Below, in pieces: positions 53,025 to 61,249 of a stretch of DNA of 64,000 bases. Source of the stretch: Cricetomys ansorgei (taxonomy: Eukaryota; Chordata; Mammalia; Rodentia; Nesomyidae); contig JAMJFZ010001089.1 in assembly GCA_026225945.1 (NCBI GenBank), forward strand, positions 3,168,501 through 3,232,500, read 5' to 3'. A program made the position numbers and the translations under genes. The notes below the pieces were generated by a model, which saw only the letters and a program-made list of their open reading frames with translations, searched no databases and had not been told where the DNA came from. Numbering within the stretch: position 1 is the stretch's first letter; every line of letters begins with the position of its first letter.

Positions 53025-53030
53025 CCCAAA
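53025..53030. repeat. Proviral target-site duplication, left copy (CCCAAA)
   Basis: CCCAAA directly abuts the left LTR, and the same hexamer abuts the right LTR at 61250-61255. Six bp is the duplication length made by betaretroviral integrases. Confidence 0.93.
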
Positions 53031-53343
53031 TGCGCCGCGCCGACCTCGTCCAGCAAGGAAGACACGACACGACTGGTTCCTTCTCAAGGCAGTTTAATCA
53101 GGAAGTTTATTACAAGAGAGAATTGCAAGGAATGGCCCCGAGCCCCAGGAGCGAGCCGCTTATATACCCTGTGGTTCATGCTGATAGGTCACCTCTGCAG
53201 CACCTCATTTGCATAACCGTTTTTGGGCAGTTATGGGTGTGTCTTAAAGGGCCAAGCTGTTCTCAACTGTAGCGCATGTGCAAAGCTATTGTTTACTACC
53301 AAGCTGGCTGAAAACCGGCGCCATCTTGGAATGGCGTCCTACA
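53031..53343 (-). repeat. 3' LTR (313 bp)
   Basis: Begins TG and ends CA in both readings. On the minus strand U3 comes first: a YY1-like AAGATGG at 53321-53327, an octamer ATGCAAAT at 53207-53214, and TATATAAG at 53159-53166. The AATAAA polyadenylation signal is at 53106-53111. R should therefore span roughly 53090-53135, with U5 below it. It differs from the 5' LTR only at 53310 (g here, a at 61216 on the plus strand). Confidence 0.96.
53106..53111 (-). terminator. LTR polyadenylation signal AATAAA
   Basis: Canonical AATAAA on the minus strand about 50 nt downstream of the TATA box; the 3' LTR copy should end the proviral transcript. The 5' LTR copy is at 61012-61017. Confidence 0.85.
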
Positions 53344-53352
53344 TCTCCCCCT
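53344..53352 (-). other. Polypurine tract
   Basis: The minus strand reads AGGGGGAGA immediately before the 3' LTR, preceded by an A/T-rich stretch. This is the standard primer position for plus-strand DNA synthesis. Confidence 0.9.
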
Positions 53353-53681
53353 ATTTTGTATAAAAGACAAAGAAGAATGTATTCCCGATCAAGAGACAAA
53401 CCTCTTGTTGGAGTCAGTCTCGATCAAGGGATTGTTCCAAGCAGAGGGGGAAACAGTGACCTGATCCCTTGTGTTCCCATATGGAAAGAATGAGACATTG
53501 TAATAGGATGTTTGCCCTGTCGGTGCACCAGAGGCCATACCTCCTATACCCGTCTCGATGACCTTTTTTCAGGGGGAGGCATTTTGTGTCATCAAACCTC
53601 CATGCAATCAGGTATATTTCCAGGAAGACCATGTGTCATGTATCCTCCTAGTCAAGTACCCACTTGACTCCCTGGCTGCAA
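53353..53681 (-). other. Proviral 3' region between env and polypurine tract
   Basis: About 330 bp after the env stop. One minus-strand frame (53632 to 53414) is open for 72 codons. I see no known accessory-protein signature in it, and a Rec- or Sag-like role is not supported. Confidence 0.5.
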
Positions 53682-55415
53682 TTAAACATCTTGATTGTCT
53701 TGTAAGGCTGCCAGCCAACATTGGGGAGATTCTCCCTTGTCTAGGGCAGCCAGTGCTTGGTAGACAACAGTCTTATGTCTGTCATGGCTCTTCTTGAGCT
53801 TACACAGCAGCCAAATACAGAGGAAACTACCAGCAAGAAACACAGCCCCAAATAAAAACATTCCCACCCATTCTTTAAAAAAGGAGAAAGCATTAGCAAT
53901 TCGGGAGGTGAAATCTCCAAGGGTGATGGGATCCACTCGAGTTCCATTCAGGGTGGCAATCTGAGAGAGTAAATCTCTGGTCATCTGTTCCGCCTGTTGT
54001 GACCAATTTCCTCTAAGATATTCCGACAATTGATGACTCTGATTAATAAACTGAGAATGGTTAACATGCAAAGGAGTAATGCACAATCCTTTAAGGGAGG
54101 AAACACATGACATTTGCACAATATTATAAAGTTCATCCAATTGTTCTTGTAAAATATTAACTCTCTGGTTGACCAATAAAACGCCTGAAGCAAGATGGGT
54201 ATTAATTTTTTCCTGTGTAGTCAAGGCAGTGGCTGTTTGTAACACTACCGAATTAATAGTTTCAGCTGTTTGAACTTGACTAGCCATAGCAACAGCAGCA
54301 GTAGTAGCAGCTGTCGCAGAAATAACCCTTTTATCTCTCAACAAATTAGTAATTGGAAAATTTCTTGGATCGGCATTCACAGGTATAGGAACAAAAGTGG
54401 GAAGCTTCACCACAAAAGCAAGATCAAAAGATCCATTCCAACATTCAGCCAAATAACAAATAATTCCAGTTTGATTACAATTAATCTGGTCTGTAGTATC
54501 ATTATTGGTTAAAATGAAGAAAAATGGTGGTCTAACACATACACCCTGAGGAGCATATGAAATATTAAACAACGTCCCTTTAGGACGAATTTGTGTAAGA
54601 ACTGGCCCAGAAGCATCATAAAGTCTTACAGCAGATATATTTTTTAATTCAAAACTTTGTCCTTGTAAACCAGCAAAAGCTGATAAACTAGTAAACGCTC
54701 CTGCTTCATTAGATAATATCCATTGATACCAAGGCCATAAATTTTCTCTGCCAGAATTATCATTATCTCTGAGCATATATCTATGTACAGGTGGAGAAAA
54801 TTCAAATCCTTTAGAAATCTGCCTAAGTCTATGTGCTTTGGTCTGACAAGGAGAAAACACAGGAGGAAACTCTAAATAAGGAGCACAATAAGGAAGTATA
54901 CGCCTATTAGTGGAATTTGGAAGGAAAGCACTAGATCTAACAGGCATCGTTCCATTATGAAGTAAAATCAATGTAGTAGTTTTTGCCGTAACCTTATCAT
55001 ACATACTCATATCACCTTTTCCTGTAAACTGTCCCAAATTCTCTCTTTTCATCGTATCAATAATTGTAGCAAAATCATTCCTATTCTTACCAAGAGGATC
55101 TAACCAATGTGCTAAAACTCCTCTTGTAAGCTGTATACATGGCAATTTTGACTTATCATGTTTTATGTGAAAGCAAAGAGTACCAACTAAAGAAAAATTT
55201 GTAGAAGAATAAGATTTCTCCTCTAACGAAGGTATAATACAAGGAACATCTCCAAGGCAGTTAGTAGAAAAGAAAGCCGGAATCGTAGTTGATTTACTAT
55301 GAACCGGCATTGGCACTGGCCATGTTCTGGCCACCGCCCAAAGCTCCAAATTATGGCTCAATTGAATTACCATCAATAAGAGTATCACCATTCGAATCAG
55401 GGAGTGCATCTTCAT
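53682..55415 (-). CDS. env: Endogenous retroviral envelope (Env), intact frame
   Basis: 577 codons with no stop. The start ATG at 55415 is the first in frame; an in-frame TAA lies 24 nt upstream. Residues about 9-20 form a hydrophobic signal segment. SU runs to a furin-type site RDKR (residues 360-363), followed by an Ala/Thr-rich fusion peptide (VISATAATTAAVAMA). TM contains a CX7C loop motif and no CX6CC, as in class II envelopes. A membrane anchor spans about 519-538, with a 39-residue tail bearing a YQAL (YxxL) sorting-type motif. At least ten N-glycosylation sequons are present. It overlaps the 3' end of pol by 65 nt and would be made from a spliced mRNA. Whether it is expressed or functional is unknown. 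Confidence 0.93.
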   Translation of the reverse strand: MKMHSLIRMVILLLMVIQLSHNLELWAVARTWPVPMPVHSKSTTIPAFFSTNCLGDVPCIIPSLEEKSYSSTNFSLVGTLCFHIKHDKSKLPCIQLTRGVLAHWLDPLGKNRNDFATIIDTMKRENLGQFTGKGDMSMYDKVTAKTTTLILLHNGTMPVRSSAFLPNSTNRRILPYCAPYLEFPPVFSPCQTKAHRLRQISKGFEFSPPVHRYMLRDNDNSGRENLWPWYQWILSNEAGAFTSLSAFAGLQGQSFELKNISAVRLYDASGPVLTQIRPKGTLFNISYAPQGVCVRPPFFFILTNNDTTDQINCNQTGIICYLAECWNGSFDLAFVVKLPTFVPIPVNADPRNFPITNLLRDKRVISATAATTAAVAMASQVQTAETINSVVLQTATALTTQEKINTHLASGVLLVNQRVNILQEQLDELYNIVQMSCVSSLKGLCITPLHVNHSQFINQSHQLSEYLRGNWSQQAEQMTRDLLSQIATLNGTRVDPITLGDFTSRIANAFSFFKEWVGMFLFGAVFLAGSFLCIWLLCKLKKSHDRHKTVVYQALAALDKGESPQCWLAALQDNQDV

Positions 55416-57974
55416 CCTGATGATCAGGAACTGTCTTTACGATCCGTGTCAGTCTTTCCGGTACCCAAATTGGATTTTCTTGATTCTGAGGAAAAACACA
55501 AACAGAGCCCCTTGTCCAGGCCAGAGCAGGATCCGGTCCATTCCATTGTCCAGTCAAAACATCTTTCCATTTAACATAACCCTTCTTATTATCATGCCAA
55601 TTAGCATGACGTTCTGCAGAAGAGCATCCATTCACATCTAGTTGTAAAAAATTTAAAGTAAAAAGAGCAAGGGAAACACGTTCCCTCGGGGTACGGCCAC
55701 GACCAATTCCCCCTTTTTGTTTTAATAGGCATTCTTTAAGAGTACGATGTGTCCTTTCAACTATGCCTTGTCCCTGTGGGTTATAAGGCAATCCATGTTT
55801 AAGGGATACTTGTATTTGAGTGCAAAACGACTTAAAAGATGCAGCTGTGTAGCCAGGACCATTGTCAGTTTTCAATTCTTGAGGTTTACCCCAGGCCGCC
55901 CATGCATCTAAGCAATGGCGTATAACATCCCTGGCTTTTTCTCCTGATAAGGGAGAAGCAAAAATAAGACCTGAACAGGTATCTATAGACACATGAACAT
56001 ATTTTAACCTTCCAAAATCAGAAAAATGTGTCACGTCCATTTGCCATAAACGTAAAGGTAACAAACCCTTCGGATTTACCCCAACGTTAGGGGGGTGAGT
56101 ATAAATGCTACAATCTGGGCAATGGACCACAATCTGTCTAGCTAATTCCCTAGGAAGTTTAAATTTAACTTGTAAAGTTCTTGTATTAACATGGAAATTT
56201 TTATGAAATTGAGTAGCCAACGCTACCGGAGAATCTAAAAGATTAATAAAAATAAACTCTCTGCGCGTGGCCATGTTAACCTCATCATTGGCAGAACTAA
56301 TGGGTCCAGGCAATCCTGTATGGGCTCGTACATGTTGTACAAAAAAAGGAAATTTACGATCCCATATCAAATGTTGTAATAACCATAATAAATTAAAAAT
56401 AGGACTGTTTGACTTTATTTTACCAGTAGCTTCCAAAACTTTTAAAACATTTACCACATATAACGAATCTGATATTAAATTAAAAGGTTTTTTAAATTTA
56501 TCAAAAACCTCTATAACAATTTTCAATTCTATAATTTGAGGAGAGGCAGGAGTAAATTGAACCACTATAGGGTCATCAGCATTATACTTATATGATCCAC
56601 ATCCATTTTTGGAACCATCAGTATAAATAATAGCAGCACCAGTTAAAGGGCTACTCTTAGTTATCTTAGGAAAAACAATAGGATGGGATTCAAAAAATTG
56701 TATTAAGGGATGTTGAGGATAATGATTATCAAACTGTGTATTACACGTACATTTCAATATAGCCCAATCATCCACAGTAGTACACAAGATTTGTAATTGA
56801 TTACTAGTAAAGGGTATAATAATTTTGGATGGTTTTACACCAAAAAACTGTAAACACTGGTGTACACCCTCTAAGGCTAATACAGCCACAGTAGTAGGAT
56901 AATATTCAAGAGTTCGGGCTACTGAAATTTTCGGATGAATCCATTTTAATGGCCCACATTGCCATAAAACAGTAGTGGGTTGAACCTTTGTTTTAAAAAT
57001 TAATAATAATATATCCTCTGAGGGTTGATACCGTCGTAAGGATGCTTTTGTTAATTCCATTTTTACCAATTGTAAAGCTGTTCGGCCCTCAGTGGTCAAT
57101 TGTCTAGGTGAATCTAAAGCGGAATCTCCACATAAAATATCATATAAGGGTTGAAGTTGATAATTAGGAATTTTTAAATATGGTCGAATCCAATTAATAT
57201 CTCCTAATAATTTTTGAAAATCATTCAAGGTATTTAAACAATCCAAGCGAATTTCAACCTTTTGAGGCTTGACTTCAAGAGGCTCAATTTTAGCTCCCAA
57301 ATAAGATACTATAGAATCATGTTGAACCTTTTCAGGGGCTATAAACAATCCTTGTTTACGTAAAAGTTTTACTAATAAGGCATAGGCCTCCTGTAAAATA
57401 CACTCATCTTTTGTTGATAATAAAATATCATCCATATAATGTAAACATCTCAGCATAGGAAATTTCAATCTTATAGGTTTAATGGCTGCAGCAACAAACA
57501 ACTGACACATAGTCGGACTATTGGCCATCCCTTGAGGAAGTACAACCCATTCATAACGGGTGTCTGGCTGTTCATGGTTTATAGAAGGCAATGTAAAAGC
57601 AAATCGTTTACAATCTTTATCACATAAGGGAATGGAGAAAAAACAATCTTTTATATCAATTACTATAATGGGCCATGATTGGGGTAATGTAGTTAATAGT
57701 GGAAGTCCACGTTGAATAGGCCCCATAATCTGCATTTGGGCATTAATGGCACGTAGGTCATGTAATAATCTCCATTTTCCTGACTTCTTTTTAATTACAA
57801 ATATGGGAGTATTCCATGGTGACACTGAAGATCTAATATGTCCCAATTGTAATTGTTCTTTTATTAAAGACTGTGCAGCTATTAATTTTTCTGAGGATAA
57901 TGGCCACTGAGGAACCCAAACCGGATCCTCAGTTTTCCAGGTAATAGGTATGCTCTCCTCAGTGGCCCCTAGGA
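55351..57974 (-). CDS. pol: Endogenous retroviral Pol: RT, RNase H, integrase
   Basis: Read by -1 frameshift from pro at 57975-57981; about 870 residues, a normal length for betaretroviral pol. RT has the DIKDCFF motif, LPQGM and YMDD (57427-57438). RNase H begins at YTDGS; its later residues include ISDSLY, but the position of the last catalytic Asp (canonical GNxxxD) reads ANDEVN, with Asn encoded by AAC at 56275-56277. Integrase has an HHCC zinc motif (HxxxH and CPDC) and a DD35E triad: Asp at 56035-56037, Asp at 55864-55866, Glu at 55756-55758, with exactly 35 residues between the last two. The C-terminal domain ends in the env overlap. There are no stops or frameshifts. Confidence 0.94.
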
Positions 57975-58900
57975 AAAACCCAAACCTTGTTGATGTGGTC
58001 TGGGAGAAACTTGAAGTGGACTTGTACGACCCTGTAAAAATTTACCAAGACCATGAGAAGGATGCCATCCCATGTTTTTCATCATAGCTTTAGAGGTGGA
58101 AGAATAACCTTTTTCATTAGTCAATTTAAAATTCATTTCTTTTAAAAGATCTCTTCCCCATAAACTAACAGGTAAATCCAATACAAATGGCTTAATATTT
58201 CCTTTATGGCCTTCTGAATCTATCCAAGGAAGTTCTCTGGCACTCATGTCAGGTGATTTGGCATATCCAAGACCTTGTAATGTTCGTGAAGAAGCCTGAA
58301 TAGGCCAATCAGGAGACCAATCCCTACTAGCGATTATGCTACGATCAGCTCCTGTGTCCAGCAATCCCAAAATAGGCTTTCCATTAATAGTCAATTGTAT
58401 TAATGGACGTTGATCCAAATCAAGAGAAAGAAATACACCATCATGTTTTGAAGAATCAAAATTTTTATTTCCTCTTTTTACTTGTTTTGCTGAAAATGTA
58501 GAATGCAAACTGGGAAGCAACACCAACTGAGCAATTTTGTCCCCAGGAGAAATTGCAGTAATGCCTCGGGGGGATGAAAGTAAAATTTTGACTGTACCTT
58601 CAAAATCCGAATCAATTATACCAGGATGAATTACTAGTCCTCCAAAAGTGGCAGATGCACGGCCAATTATTAAGCCCACAGAATCTGGAGGCAAAGGTCC
58701 CTTAAAATCAGTTTCCACGGGTTGTACTCCCATTTGAGGAGTTAATACGAGTCTGGTGGTGCAACAGAGGTCCAACCCGGCAGAACCGGGCGTGGCCCTT
58801 TTTGGGCTTTTTGACTTGGAATATTGGGAAGTTGTCCTTCTGGATTCTCCATTGCCCCATATATTTGTGTTGGGCCCTGGGGTCGAGGGCCCTGCTGACC
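57969..58900 (-). CDS. pro: Endogenous retroviral Pro: dUTPase, protease, G-patch
   Basis: About 310 codons in the -1 frame relative to gag, entered at the slippery site 58901-58907. dUTPase motifs include AGLDL (58767-58781), GLIIGRAS and HPGIIDSDFEG. The aspartic protease follows with LLDTGADRSI (DTG at 58350-58358) and WGRDLL. A G-patch-like end (MGWHPSHGLGKF) precedes the stop at 57969. dUTPase fused upstream of protease is typical of betaretroviruses. There is no ATG start of its own; expression depends on frameshifting. The key motifs that I can see are present. Confidence 0.93.
57975..57981 (-). promoter_or_regulatory. pro-pol -1 frameshift heptamer G GGT TTT
   Basis: On the minus strand, TTG GGT TTT in the pro frame gives G GGT TTT, fitting X XXY YYZ, six nt before the pro stop. 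The pol frame is exactly -1 relative to pro and open from here. Confidence 0.8.
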
Positions 58901-60664
58901 GTTTTTTGAACGAGCTCCACCATATCCTGGAGTTAGTAGGTTTCCATCAATATCCTTAACGGATCTGTATTCACCAACCCAATGATTTCCCTTTCTGCAC
59001 CTTGAACATATTCCTGGCCTAGGCCTGCCTCTAGATGCCTCCCTTTCAGGGCAATTCTGTTTAAAATGTCCTCGACGTCCACATCCATAACATGTCCCTG
59101 ACTTGTTTCCTTTTCCCTTATGAATCTGTAGAACTGCGGCAGCTAAGCCAGCATTGGATAACGGACCTCCAACTTCCCTACAAGCTTTCATCCACGCTGT
59201 TAACCCCTTAGATTTCCATGGGGTAATAGCTGTTCTACATTCTTTTGTACACTGTTCATAAACTAGCTGTTCAATCAAAGGCATGGCAGAATCAGGATCC
59301 CCAAAAATTCTTCCTGTAGATTCCATTATTCTGGTTACAAAATCTGAAAAGGGCTCTGTTGGTCCCTGAATTATCTTAGTAAGATTACCTGACACTTCTC
59401 CCTTATTAGGTAAGGCTTTCCATGCTTTTATAGCTGCGACATTAATCTGGTCATACACTTGTGCAGGGAACACGGTCTGATCATTTGCCCACTGTCCTTG
59501 TCCCATGAGCATATCAAAATTCCAGGCTGGTTGATTGATAGGGGGCGCAGCATTAAGACGAGCCTGTGTTTGCACCAAATCAGCATAAATTGATTTCCAA
59601 TCCAAATATTGTCCCATTGTCAGACAAGCTTTTACAGTACTCATCCAGTCATTAGGAGTCATGGCGGCCATCGCCAGACGCTCCAATTGTGCTTGTGTAA
59701 AAGCAGCATTTACACCATAAGTTTTTACTGACTCTGCTAAATTTTTTAATTGTTTAAAATCTAATGGCTCATAAATTCTCTGACCTTGAGGGTTAGCATA
59801 CACCGGAAAGGCCAAAGAGGCAGATGAAGCCTCCTTCCATGTCTGAGGACAAAAGGAACATTTAGGCACCGCCTCCACATAGGGAGGGGGCACCGCGGAC
59901 GGTGCCGTAGGGCAGGGCAAAGAAGGCTCCTCCCATTTGGGCGGAGTTTTCTTGTCTCCTTCCTGTTTTTCCTCTGGTCCGTTTCCTTTTCCGGGCAAAG
60001 AAGGCTCCTCCCATTTGGGCGGAGCTCCCTTGTCTCCTTCCTGTTTTTCTCTTAAACCTTTTCCTTTTTCGCCGCCATCTTTTTTCTTTGTCTTAGAAAG
60101 GGCTTTCATTTTGTTTAACAATGAAGCCTCCATCTCATTTAATAGTGTCTTAACCCCTTTTCTCATTTCTTCTAGTTCTTGTTCAGAATCACTAAAGCAG
60201 CTCTTTTCGGAATCACTAGAGCGACTGTCTCCTGTATTACTCTCACTACCACTTTCGACCTTCCGTAACTCCTCTTTTAAGTCTGGATAAAGCTGTCCTC
60301 TCTTTTTCCCCTTTTTTCCGCTCATGGATGACCTTTCAGAACGCGCTTCCTTAACTGCCTCCAATGCCTCAGCAGAGGCTTGTACAGCCTCTCGGCAATC
60401 TTCATCTTCCAAACAACTACGTATCATTTTCCAAACTCTCCTCACTCCTCCCTTTAATGTTTTTTGTTCCCAAGCAAAATCTAAATCTTTTCCCAATTTA
60501 TCCCAACTTGGAATAGTTACTTTGCCTGTAGCTGCAAACCATGGAGCCACGGTATCCACTTCCTGTAAAAACTGAGCTATAATTTTATCTTTTATTTTAA
60601 TTCCGCGAGTGCGGAGAAGTTCTTGTAAAGCCAATTTCATTGGACAGGAAGGTGAGGCACCCAT
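58742..60664 (-). CDS. gag: Endogenous retroviral Gag polyprotein
   Basis: 640 codons starting at ATG 60664. MGASPS fits an N-myristoylation signal, and upstream in-frame sequence has no ATG. Matrix contains the APWF motif. A charged linker holds LYPDL (residues 125-129), a 26-residue tandem repeat, PTAP (252-255) and PPPY (259-262), three late-domain types. Capsid probably starts near Pro287 (PVYANPQGQ) and has a major homology region (QGPTEPFSDF). Nucleocapsid has a normal CCHC knuckle (525-538). The second (553-566) has Tyr566 (TAC, 58967-58969) where the last Cys is expected. The frame is otherwise intact, and the 3' end overlaps pro. Confidence 0.95.
   Translation of the reverse strand: MGASPSCPMKLALQELLRTRGIKIKDKIIAQFLQEVDTVAPWFAATGKVTIPSWDKLGKDLDFAWEQKTLKGGVRRVWKMIRSCLEDEDCREAVQASAEALEAVKEARSERSSMSGKKGKKRGQLYPDLKEELRKVESGSESNTGDSRSSDSEKSCFSDSEQELEEMRKGVKTLLNEMEASLLNKMKALSKTKKKDGGEKGKGLREKQEGDKGAPPKWEEPSLPGKGNGPEEKQEGDKKTPPKWEEPSLPCPTAPSAVPPPYVEAVPKCSFCPQTWKEASSASLAFPVYANPQGQRIYEPLDFKQLKNLAESVKTYGVNAAFTQAQLERLAMAAMTPNDWMSTVKACLTMGQYLDWKSIYADLVQTQARLNAAPPINQPAWNFDMLMGQGQWANDQTVFPAQVYDQINVAAIKAWKALPNKGEVSGNLTKIIQGPTEPFSDFVTRIMESTGRIFGDPDSAMPLIEQLVYEQCTKECRTAITPWKSKGLTAWMKACREVGGPLSNAGLAAAVLQIHKGKGNKSGTCYGCGRRGHFKQNCPEREASRGRPRPGICSRCRKGNHWVGEYRSVKDIDGNLLTPGYGGARSKNGQQGPRPQGPTQIYGAMENPEGQLPNIPSQKAQKGPRPVLPGWTSVAPPDSY
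58901..58907 (-). promoter_or_regulatory. gag-pro -1 frameshift heptamer A AAA AAC
   Basis: On the minus strand the gag codons TCA AAA AAC give A AAA AAC, a classic betaretroviral slippery heptamer in the correct frame. The pro frame is -1 and remains open from this point. A downstream pseudoknot was not modelled. Confidence 0.92.
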
Positions 60665-60745
60665 AGTTTCATCTTTTAAAGTTGTATAACCGCAACAGGC
60701 ACACAGATTCACTATTACCGCCTTTTCGCGACCCTCTAATTAAAT

Positions 60746-60845
60746 CTCTTACCGAGAACTTTAGCTCAACCTCTTTTCGAGGACTTTAACTTAACCTCTG
60801 TCCGAGGACTTTAACTTAACCTCTTTCCGAGGACTTTAACTTAAG
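60746..60845 (-). repeat. Four tandem 25-bp repeats in proviral leader
   Basis: Units 60746-60770, 60771-60795, 60796-60820 and 60821-60845 share the plus-strand core 'gaggactttaactta'. Units 2-4 are nearly identical and the first is the most diverged. Confidence 0.93.
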
Positions 60846-60916
60846 CCTACTTACCTAGGCACTTACCGATCGATCGCCCTGACCGCCAAGAGTTCTGGAA
60901 CCCCGGGACTTCACTG

Positions 60917-60934
60917 TCCCCGTACGGGCCACCA
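60917..60934 (-). other. Primer-binding site, tRNA-Ile type
   Basis: The minus strand reads TGGTGGCCCGTACGGGGA, two nt inside the 5' LTR. Its complement is the 3' end of mammalian tRNA-Ile(AAU) with CCA, matching all 18 nt as I recall that tRNA. Confidence 0.85.
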
Positions 60935-60936
60935 AC

Positions 60937-61249
60937 TGCGCCGCGCCGACCTCGTCCAGCAAGGAAGACACGACACGACTGGTTCCTTCTCAAGGCAGTT
61001 TAATCAGGAAGTTTATTACAAGAGAGAATTGCAAGGAATGGCCCCGAGCCCCAGGAGCGAGCCGCTTATATACCCTGTGGTTCATGCTGATAGGTCACCT
61101 CTGCAGCACCTCATTTGCATAACCGTTTTTGGGCAGTTATGGGTGTGTCTTAAAGGGCCAAGCTGTTCTCAACTGTAGCGCATGTGCAAAGCTATTGTTT
61201 ACTACCAAGCTGGCTAAAAACCGGCGCCATCTTGGAATGGCGTCCTACA
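60937..61249 (-). repeat. 5' LTR (313 bp)
   Basis: Identical to the 3' LTR except one base (61216). The octamer is at 61113-61120, TATATAAG at 61065-61072 and AATAAA at 61012-61017. Proviral transcription from here would run leftward, antisense to Ly86. Confidence 0.96.

What the first reader, a model, noticed from the sequence alone, without database searches (positions are those of the whole stretch)
53031..61249. Very young, nearly complete betaretrovirus-like provirus
Seen: the two 313-bp LTRs differ at a single base, an exact CCCAAA duplication flanks the element, and gag, pro, pol and env are all free of stops. One difference in 313 bp (0.32%) implies age about 0.0032/(2r); at an assumed rodent neutral rate near 5e-9 per site per year that is roughly 0.3 million years. 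It may still be polymorphic in the species.
Basis: partly seen in the sequence, partly recalled or inferred. Interest (0 to 1): 0.85.

Follow-up and report, generated by a model that had tools for sequence, protein, structure and literature searches.

The report
Recent, still-heterozygous pouched-rat endogenous retrovirus
A pouched rat's genome holds a recently inserted endogenous retrovirus that is present on one copy of the chromosome and missing from the other, and it belongs to a family of similarly young copies that seems to have spread with the help of its own envelope gene.

Summary
In detail: on the minus strand, 53031-61249 is an 8,219-bp provirus with 313-bp LTRs differing at one base, an exact 6-bp target duplication, and gag, pro, pol and env frames without stops. 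The guess that it is polymorphic is now supported directly. The same assembly holds contig C839, collinear with the window at 99.4-99.9%, with the empty site: 432 of 432 bases identical to the joined flanks, one CCCAAA. The host is a Cricetomys pouched rat, judged from a mitochondrial insert. Sister copies are young too: of 34 proviral loci with both LTRs, 18 pairs are identical and 13 differ once. Env is under purifying selection among copies (dN/dS 0.17), which favours env-dependent reinfection over purely intracellular copying. This copy is less intact than stop counting suggests: env has lost 36 bp in frame at the start of the fusion peptide, and one Gag zinc knuckle is non-canonical. The primer site fits tRNA-Ile. 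Pol falls in a broad class II clade with IAP. It is a new member of a known kind. Polymorphism of the sister loci remains untested.

The parts
53025..53030 (.). target-site duplication CCCAAA beside the 3' LTR
   Evidence: a single copy in the empty-site allele
53031..53343 (-). 3' LTR, 313 bp, TG...CA
53344..53352 (-). polypurine tract just before the 3' LTR
   Evidence: read from the sequence; naming by recall
53682..55436 (-). env frame, 584 aa stop to stop, furin-like site and GP41-type TM; has an in-frame 36-bp loss at the start of the fusion peptide
55351..58041 (-). pol frame: reverse transcriptase, thumb, RNase H, integrase
57975..57981 (-). candidate pro-pol slippery heptamer G GGT TTT in the pro frame
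   Evidence: function not tested
57969..58946 (-). pro frame: dUTPase, aspartyl protease, G-patch
58901..58907 (-). gag-pro slippery heptamer A AAA AAC in the gag frame
   Evidence: function not tested
58742..60664 (-). gag from an MG start to the stop: p10 matrix, p24 capsid, PTAP and PPPY motifs, two zinc knuckles of which the second is non-canonical
   Evidence: late-domain and myristoylation reading by recall
59915..60070 (-). 78-bp tandem duplication inside gag
   Evidence: an exact 20-base probe occurs twice in 11 of 12 other copies in which it occurs, once in C1096
60746..60844 (-). four 25-bp tandem repeats in the leader; leader length differs between copies, mostly in steps of 25 bp
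60917..60934 (-). primer-binding site, 18 nt complementary to the 3' end of host tRNA-Ile(AAT) with its CCA
60937..61249 (-). 5' LTR, 313 bp, with TATATAAG and AATAAA
61250..61255 (.). target-site duplication CCCAAA beside the 5' LTR

Best explanation
This is a recent germline insertion of an env-bearing class II endogenous retrovirus in a Cricetomys pouched rat, present on one haplotype and absent from the other in the sequenced animal. Integration duplicated 6 bp (shown). The family has multiplied to at least 34 proviral loci with near-identical LTR pairs (shown, a lower bound). Most likely it spread through particles that re-infected the germline, because env variants shared between copies are strongly filtered for protein function (inferred). 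Reverse transcription would be primed by tRNA-Ile (inferred from an 18-nt match) and Gag-Pro-Pol made by two -1 frameshifts (inferred from in-frame heptamers). This copy probably cannot enter cells with its own Env, because the start of the fusion peptide is missing; it was probably carried in by Env of other copies, or lost the segment in its last reverse transcription or after integration (inferred).
For: Anatomy. Empty-site allele C839:38089-38520, 100% over 432 nt. C839 is collinear with window 14675-64000 except for the element, 87 mismatches in 41,074 aligned columns; 23 mismatches in 7,759 columns of near flank. Host: cytochrome b insert 97-98% to Cricetomys, next genus Eliurus 93-95%, best 120 of 8,000 hits listed. 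Sister copies: 75 env matches scored of 1,066 candidates, 35 at 97% or more including the window, 62 of 75 without a stop. LTR pairs at 34 distinct loci: 18 identical, 13 with one difference, 3 with more; 23 differences in 10,577 columns; in the 29-locus main group 0.20% within pairs against 0.93% between loci. Env dN/dS 0.17 over 491 pairs of 32 sequences, pairs with under 8 differences dropped; N/S of shared variants 0.15 and of singletons 0.38 at 29 loci, 0.12 and 0.33 in the main group of 24. PBS: 80 exact matches in the genome, 0 for the reversed control; host tRNA-Ile(AAT) gene.
Against: One individual only; C839 could in principle be a recent segmental duplicate rather than the other allele. 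Env copies were found by similarity to env, and those used for dN/dS had frames of 595 aa or more (plus the window), which favours conserved copies. Copies share ancestry, so pairs are not independent. Env constraint could reflect a few intact source loci rather than reinfection. Four of nine other copies with gag fetched whole have a broken gag frame (C3179, C1096, C1002, C4003), and some of these indels may be assembly errors. Four of 32 loci gave no exact 6-bp duplication by script (C999, C3989, C280, C1607). Heterozygosity of the sister loci could not be tested. At one locus, C376/C436, the insertion is on both of two apparent haplotype contigs.
Confidence: 0.82

Rival explanations
1. Old provirus whose LTRs were homogenised by gene conversion.
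For: LTR identity alone cannot exclude it.
Against: An empty-site allele with flanks identical over 432 nt exists in the same assembly, and its contig is collinear over about 49 kb. Eighteen of 34 loci have identical LTR pairs while loci differ by 0.93%, so conversion would have to act at nearly every locus, within but not between loci.
Confidence: 0.03
2. C839 is a paralogous segmental duplicate, so the window insertion may be fixed at its own locus.
For: Only one individual and no linkage or read depth was available.
Against: C839 is a 72.7-kb contig; its first 41 kb are collinear with the window at 0.2% divergence, as expected of an unmerged second haplotype. The assembly also holds other apparent haplotype pairs such as C376/C436, with three markers at near-constant offset. 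Even so, the insertion would post-date a 0.2%-old duplication and still be young.
Confidence: 0.1
3. The family multiplied by intracellular retrotransposition and env is a passenger.
For: Close relatives by Pol, the IAPs, mostly do so (recall). Internally deleted copies have been copied or formed (5 of 34 loci are 3.8-5.7 kb). The window copy has a damaged fusion peptide.
Against: Env variants shared between copies have N/S 0.15, and env pairwise dN/dS is 0.17.
Confidence: 0.15
4. The provirus is a somatic integration of an exogenous virus in the sampled tissue.
For: It is absent from the other haplotype.
Against: It is assembled in a 16.9-Mb contig, which needs it in a large share of cells (inference). 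Another family member, C376/C436, is on both of two apparent haplotypes.
Confidence: 0.04

Closest known systems
IAP and IAPE elements of mouse and hamster
   Same: Class II; Pol 52-53% identical to the IAP Pol record and to Chinese hamster CHIAP34; one 24-row Pol clade, support 100/100, holds both. IAPE is an IAP-type element with an envelope, present at over 200 copies in the mouse (abstract listing of PMC3197615).
   Different: In the Pol tree the window copy sits in a different sub-clade, with rabbit, Dipodomys and Scotinomys elements (99/99). Env was not compared with IAPE Env. IAP primer site tRNA-Phe by recall, here tRNA-Ile.
Deer mouse Beta_Pman-ERV_cluster-5 (PMC10089650; abstract and passages seen)
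   Same: A recent rodent class II family with intact env, reported about 60% similar to IAP-element env.
   Different: Another host family; sequences not available here, so kinship was not tested.
Uncharacterised Env proteins of Arvicanthis, Rattus, Ictidomys, Marmota, Scotinomys and Cricetulus
   Same: Same Env type, 41-50% identical over 80-99% for the full-length ones.
   Different: No hit above 50% identity among the 25 listed; no close relative in that database at its sensitivity.
Type D simian retroviruses (simian retrovirus 4)
   Same: Same gene order with dUTPase and G-patch in pro; Pol 48%.
   Different: Outside the Pol clade that holds the window copy.

Membership tests
Class II / betaretrovirus-like ERV | dUTPase at the N-terminus of Pro (marker from passages of PMC1224870) | tested here: met
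   Pfam dUTPase 45-166 then RVP 178-275
Class II / betaretrovirus-like ERV | G-patch at the C-terminus of Pro (found only in betaretroviruses in that paper) | tested here: met
   Pfam G-patch 282-323
Class II / betaretrovirus-like ERV | two NC zinc fingers | tested here: inconclusive
   two canonical knuckles in 5 of 7 copies read; the second non-canonical in the window copy and C3179
Class II / betaretrovirus-like ERV | gag, pro and pol in three frames joined by -1 frameshifts | tested here: met
   overlapping frames and in-frame heptamers; slippage itself not tested
Class II / betaretrovirus-like ERV | 6-bp target duplication and TG...CA LTRs (recall) | tested here: met
Class II / betaretrovirus-like ERV | tRNA-Lys primer site as in exogenous betaretroviruses (recall) | tested here: not met
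   tRNA-Ile match instead; the primer varies among class II ERVs (recall), so it bears on the genus, not on the class
IAP/IAPE | Pol inside the IAP sub-clade | tested here: not met
   same 100/100 clade but another sub-clade
IAP/IAPE | Env homologous to IAPE Env | not tested
   no IAPE Env was among the sequences held
Genus Betaretrovirus (MMTV, JSRV, type D) | Pol groups with these viruses | tested here: inconclusive
   only SRV-4 was in the tree, and it fell outside; MMTV, JSRV and HERV-K were not included

The most novel reading that the evidence does not exclude
A germline invasion in progress: an infectious, env-dependent class II retrovirus using a tRNA-Ile primer is still circulating in, or being reseeded from, pouched rats, so that most of the young proviruses are unfixed, as for KoRV in koalas (comparison from recall).
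Probability: 0.3. Interest if true: 0.8.

Novelty: new member of a known kind. Interest (0 to 1): 0.5.

Why it matters
It gives a dated, heterozygous insertion with both alleles in hand, and a large set of young sister loci in a rodent family for which three searches of the held library found no paper on endogenous retroviruses (no hit for Cricetomys with 'endogenous retrovirus'; the other hits judged from title and abstract listing only). That makes it possible to ask, by population genotyping, whether a retrovirus is still entering a mammalian germline. It also shows that open reading frames alone overstate how intact a provirus is.

Tried and rejected
Rfam and ARAGORN gave nothing in the window. 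A viral-contig scan with Pol matched 12 stretches, none of them a relative. The leader fold is not exceptional (z -1.57, 14 of 200 shuffles as stable), so I make no claim of a special RNA structure. Ten other long frames of the window have no Pfam match (10 of 16 frames of 130 aa or more were given). The hint of recombination in env is weak (adjacent-site incompatibility p 0.024) and the env tree is poorly resolved (7 of 27 inner branches starred). The deer mouse was my first guess for the host and was dropped after the cytochrome b search. A first reading of the pro-pol slippery site was dropped for the in-frame heptamer.

Full report
Observation. The element lies on the minus strand at 53031-61249. 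Both LTRs are 313 bp, with one mismatch; CCCAAA flanks it on both sides. The four frames gag, pro, pol and env are free of stops and carry the expected domains: p10, p24 and a zinc knuckle in Gag; dUTPase, protease and G-patch in Pro; RT, thumb, RNase H and integrase in Pol; a GP41-type domain in Env. An A AAA AAC heptamer stands in the gag frame at 58907 and a G GGT TTT heptamer in the pro frame at 57981, within the respective overlaps.

Host. The strongest cytochrome b match in the assembly is an insert with 7 TGA codons read as stops by the standard code; its best database hits are Cricetomys at 97-98%, then Eliurus at 93-95% (best 120 of 8,000 listed). The genome is therefore most likely Cricetomys; the species is not settled.

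Empty site. The two flanks, joined with one CCCAAA, match contig C839 over all 432 bases at 100%; the window's own locus matches as two pieces that overlap by the 6-bp duplication. Positions 1-41123 of C839 (58,000 of its 72,734 bases were fetched) are collinear with window 14675-64000 at 99.4-99.9% and skip only the element. The simplest reading is a heterozygous insertion. That agrees with the LTR estimate, whose own range is wide (about 0.01-1.8 My; both figures by hand).

Family. An env search scored 75 of 1,066 candidates; 35 are at 97% or more including the window, and 62 of 75 have no stop. The LTR search scored 40 of 545 candidates. I fetched pieces of these copies: 34 distinct loci have both LTRs after setting aside C376, C146 and C3038 as likely second copies of the same insertion. 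Of the 34 pairs, 18 are identical, 13 differ once, 3 more often; the mean is 0.22% (23 in 10,577), and in the main group of 29 loci 0.20% within pairs against 0.93% between loci. C1454, at a contig end, was not fetched. Six further loci are single LTRs, five with a 6-bp and one with a 5-bp duplication. So the loci carry diversity that arose before they inserted.

Env under selection. Among 32 env sequences with frames of 595 aa or more, plus the window, dN/dS is 0.17 over 491 pairs. At 29 loci, variants shared by two or more copies have N/S 0.15 and singletons 0.38; in the main group of 24, 0.12 and 0.33. This is the pattern expected if Env was needed for spread and errors of the last cycle or after insertion were not yet filtered. 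Ascertainment through env similarity leans the same way, so the result is strong but not clean.

This copy's lesions. Env has lost 36 bp in frame directly after the cleavage site, in the fusion peptide; the 31 other env sequences inspected (28 distinct loci) have the segment. Its second Gag zinc knuckle is non-canonical, as in C3179; 5 of the 7 copies read are canonical. Copies without these lesions exist. Open frames alone would have called this provirus intact.

Primer and kinship. The 18 nt two bases after the 5' LTR are complementary to the end of a tRNA-Ile(AAT) gene of the same genome plus CCA; the same 18-mer occurs 80 times in the assembly and its reversed control never. In a Pol tree of 27 rows (26 chosen from the 120 listed of 583 hits), the window copy groups with rabbit, Dipodomys, Scotinomys and unnamed elements (99/99), inside a 100/100 clade that also holds IAP and excludes SRV-4. 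MMTV, JSRV and HERV-K were not in that tree. Env's best database relatives are 49-50% identical, from Arvicanthis and Rattus.

Papers. PMC10089650: abstract, outline and passages; it reports a recent env-bearing class II cluster in the deer mouse. PMC1224870: passages. PMC3197615: passages and listing. The searches for Cricetomys or Nesomyidae with retroviruses listed nothing on this family. In the search for a tRNA-Ile primer in betaretroviruses, the term tRNA-Ile occurred in none of the 20 papers listed of 87; a second search gave nothing to the point.

Verdict. A real, young, heterozygous provirus of a family that multiplied recently; known in kind, new in host and apparently in sequence. 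What would raise it is evidence that the sister loci are mostly unfixed, which I could not obtain because the search did not complete.

Noticed in passing
G000:C146:9480052, C4237:9395334, C3038:950545: Three contigs of about 10.4 Mb carry the same insertion with the same flank and duplication; C3038 has a 15-nt gap difference in its 5' LTR. Three copies are more than two haplotypes would give.
   Followed up: no
G000:C376 and C436: Two 16-Mb contigs look like haplotypes of each other and both carry a family member with 3 LTR differences and identical env, an older insertion present on both.
   Followed up: partly
L073:648-1236 (G000:C999): An LTR-like stretch 84% identical directly abuts the 5' LTR in the same orientation, and this locus has no target duplication.
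   Followed up: no
G000:C46, C998, C79, C2376, C280: Five of 34 proviral loci are internally deleted to 3.8-5.7 kb but keep env; they were found through env, so that retention is expected.
   Followed up: no
G000, env matches at 75-91%: Older or parallel env subfamilies, most with frames of about 593 aa, many without stops.
   Followed up: no
window 60746-60844: The leader carries 25-bp tandem repeats, and leader length steps through about 222, 247, 272 and 297 in most copies (a few at 254-279).
   Followed up: partly
env singletons of 29 loci: G>A makes up 41 of 121 singleton changes, as APOBEC3-type editing might leave; sequence context was not tested.
   Followed up: no
15 of 34 proviral loci: They lie on contigs shorter than 300 kb (lengths), as unmerged haplotype contigs would be; not tested.
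   Followed up: no
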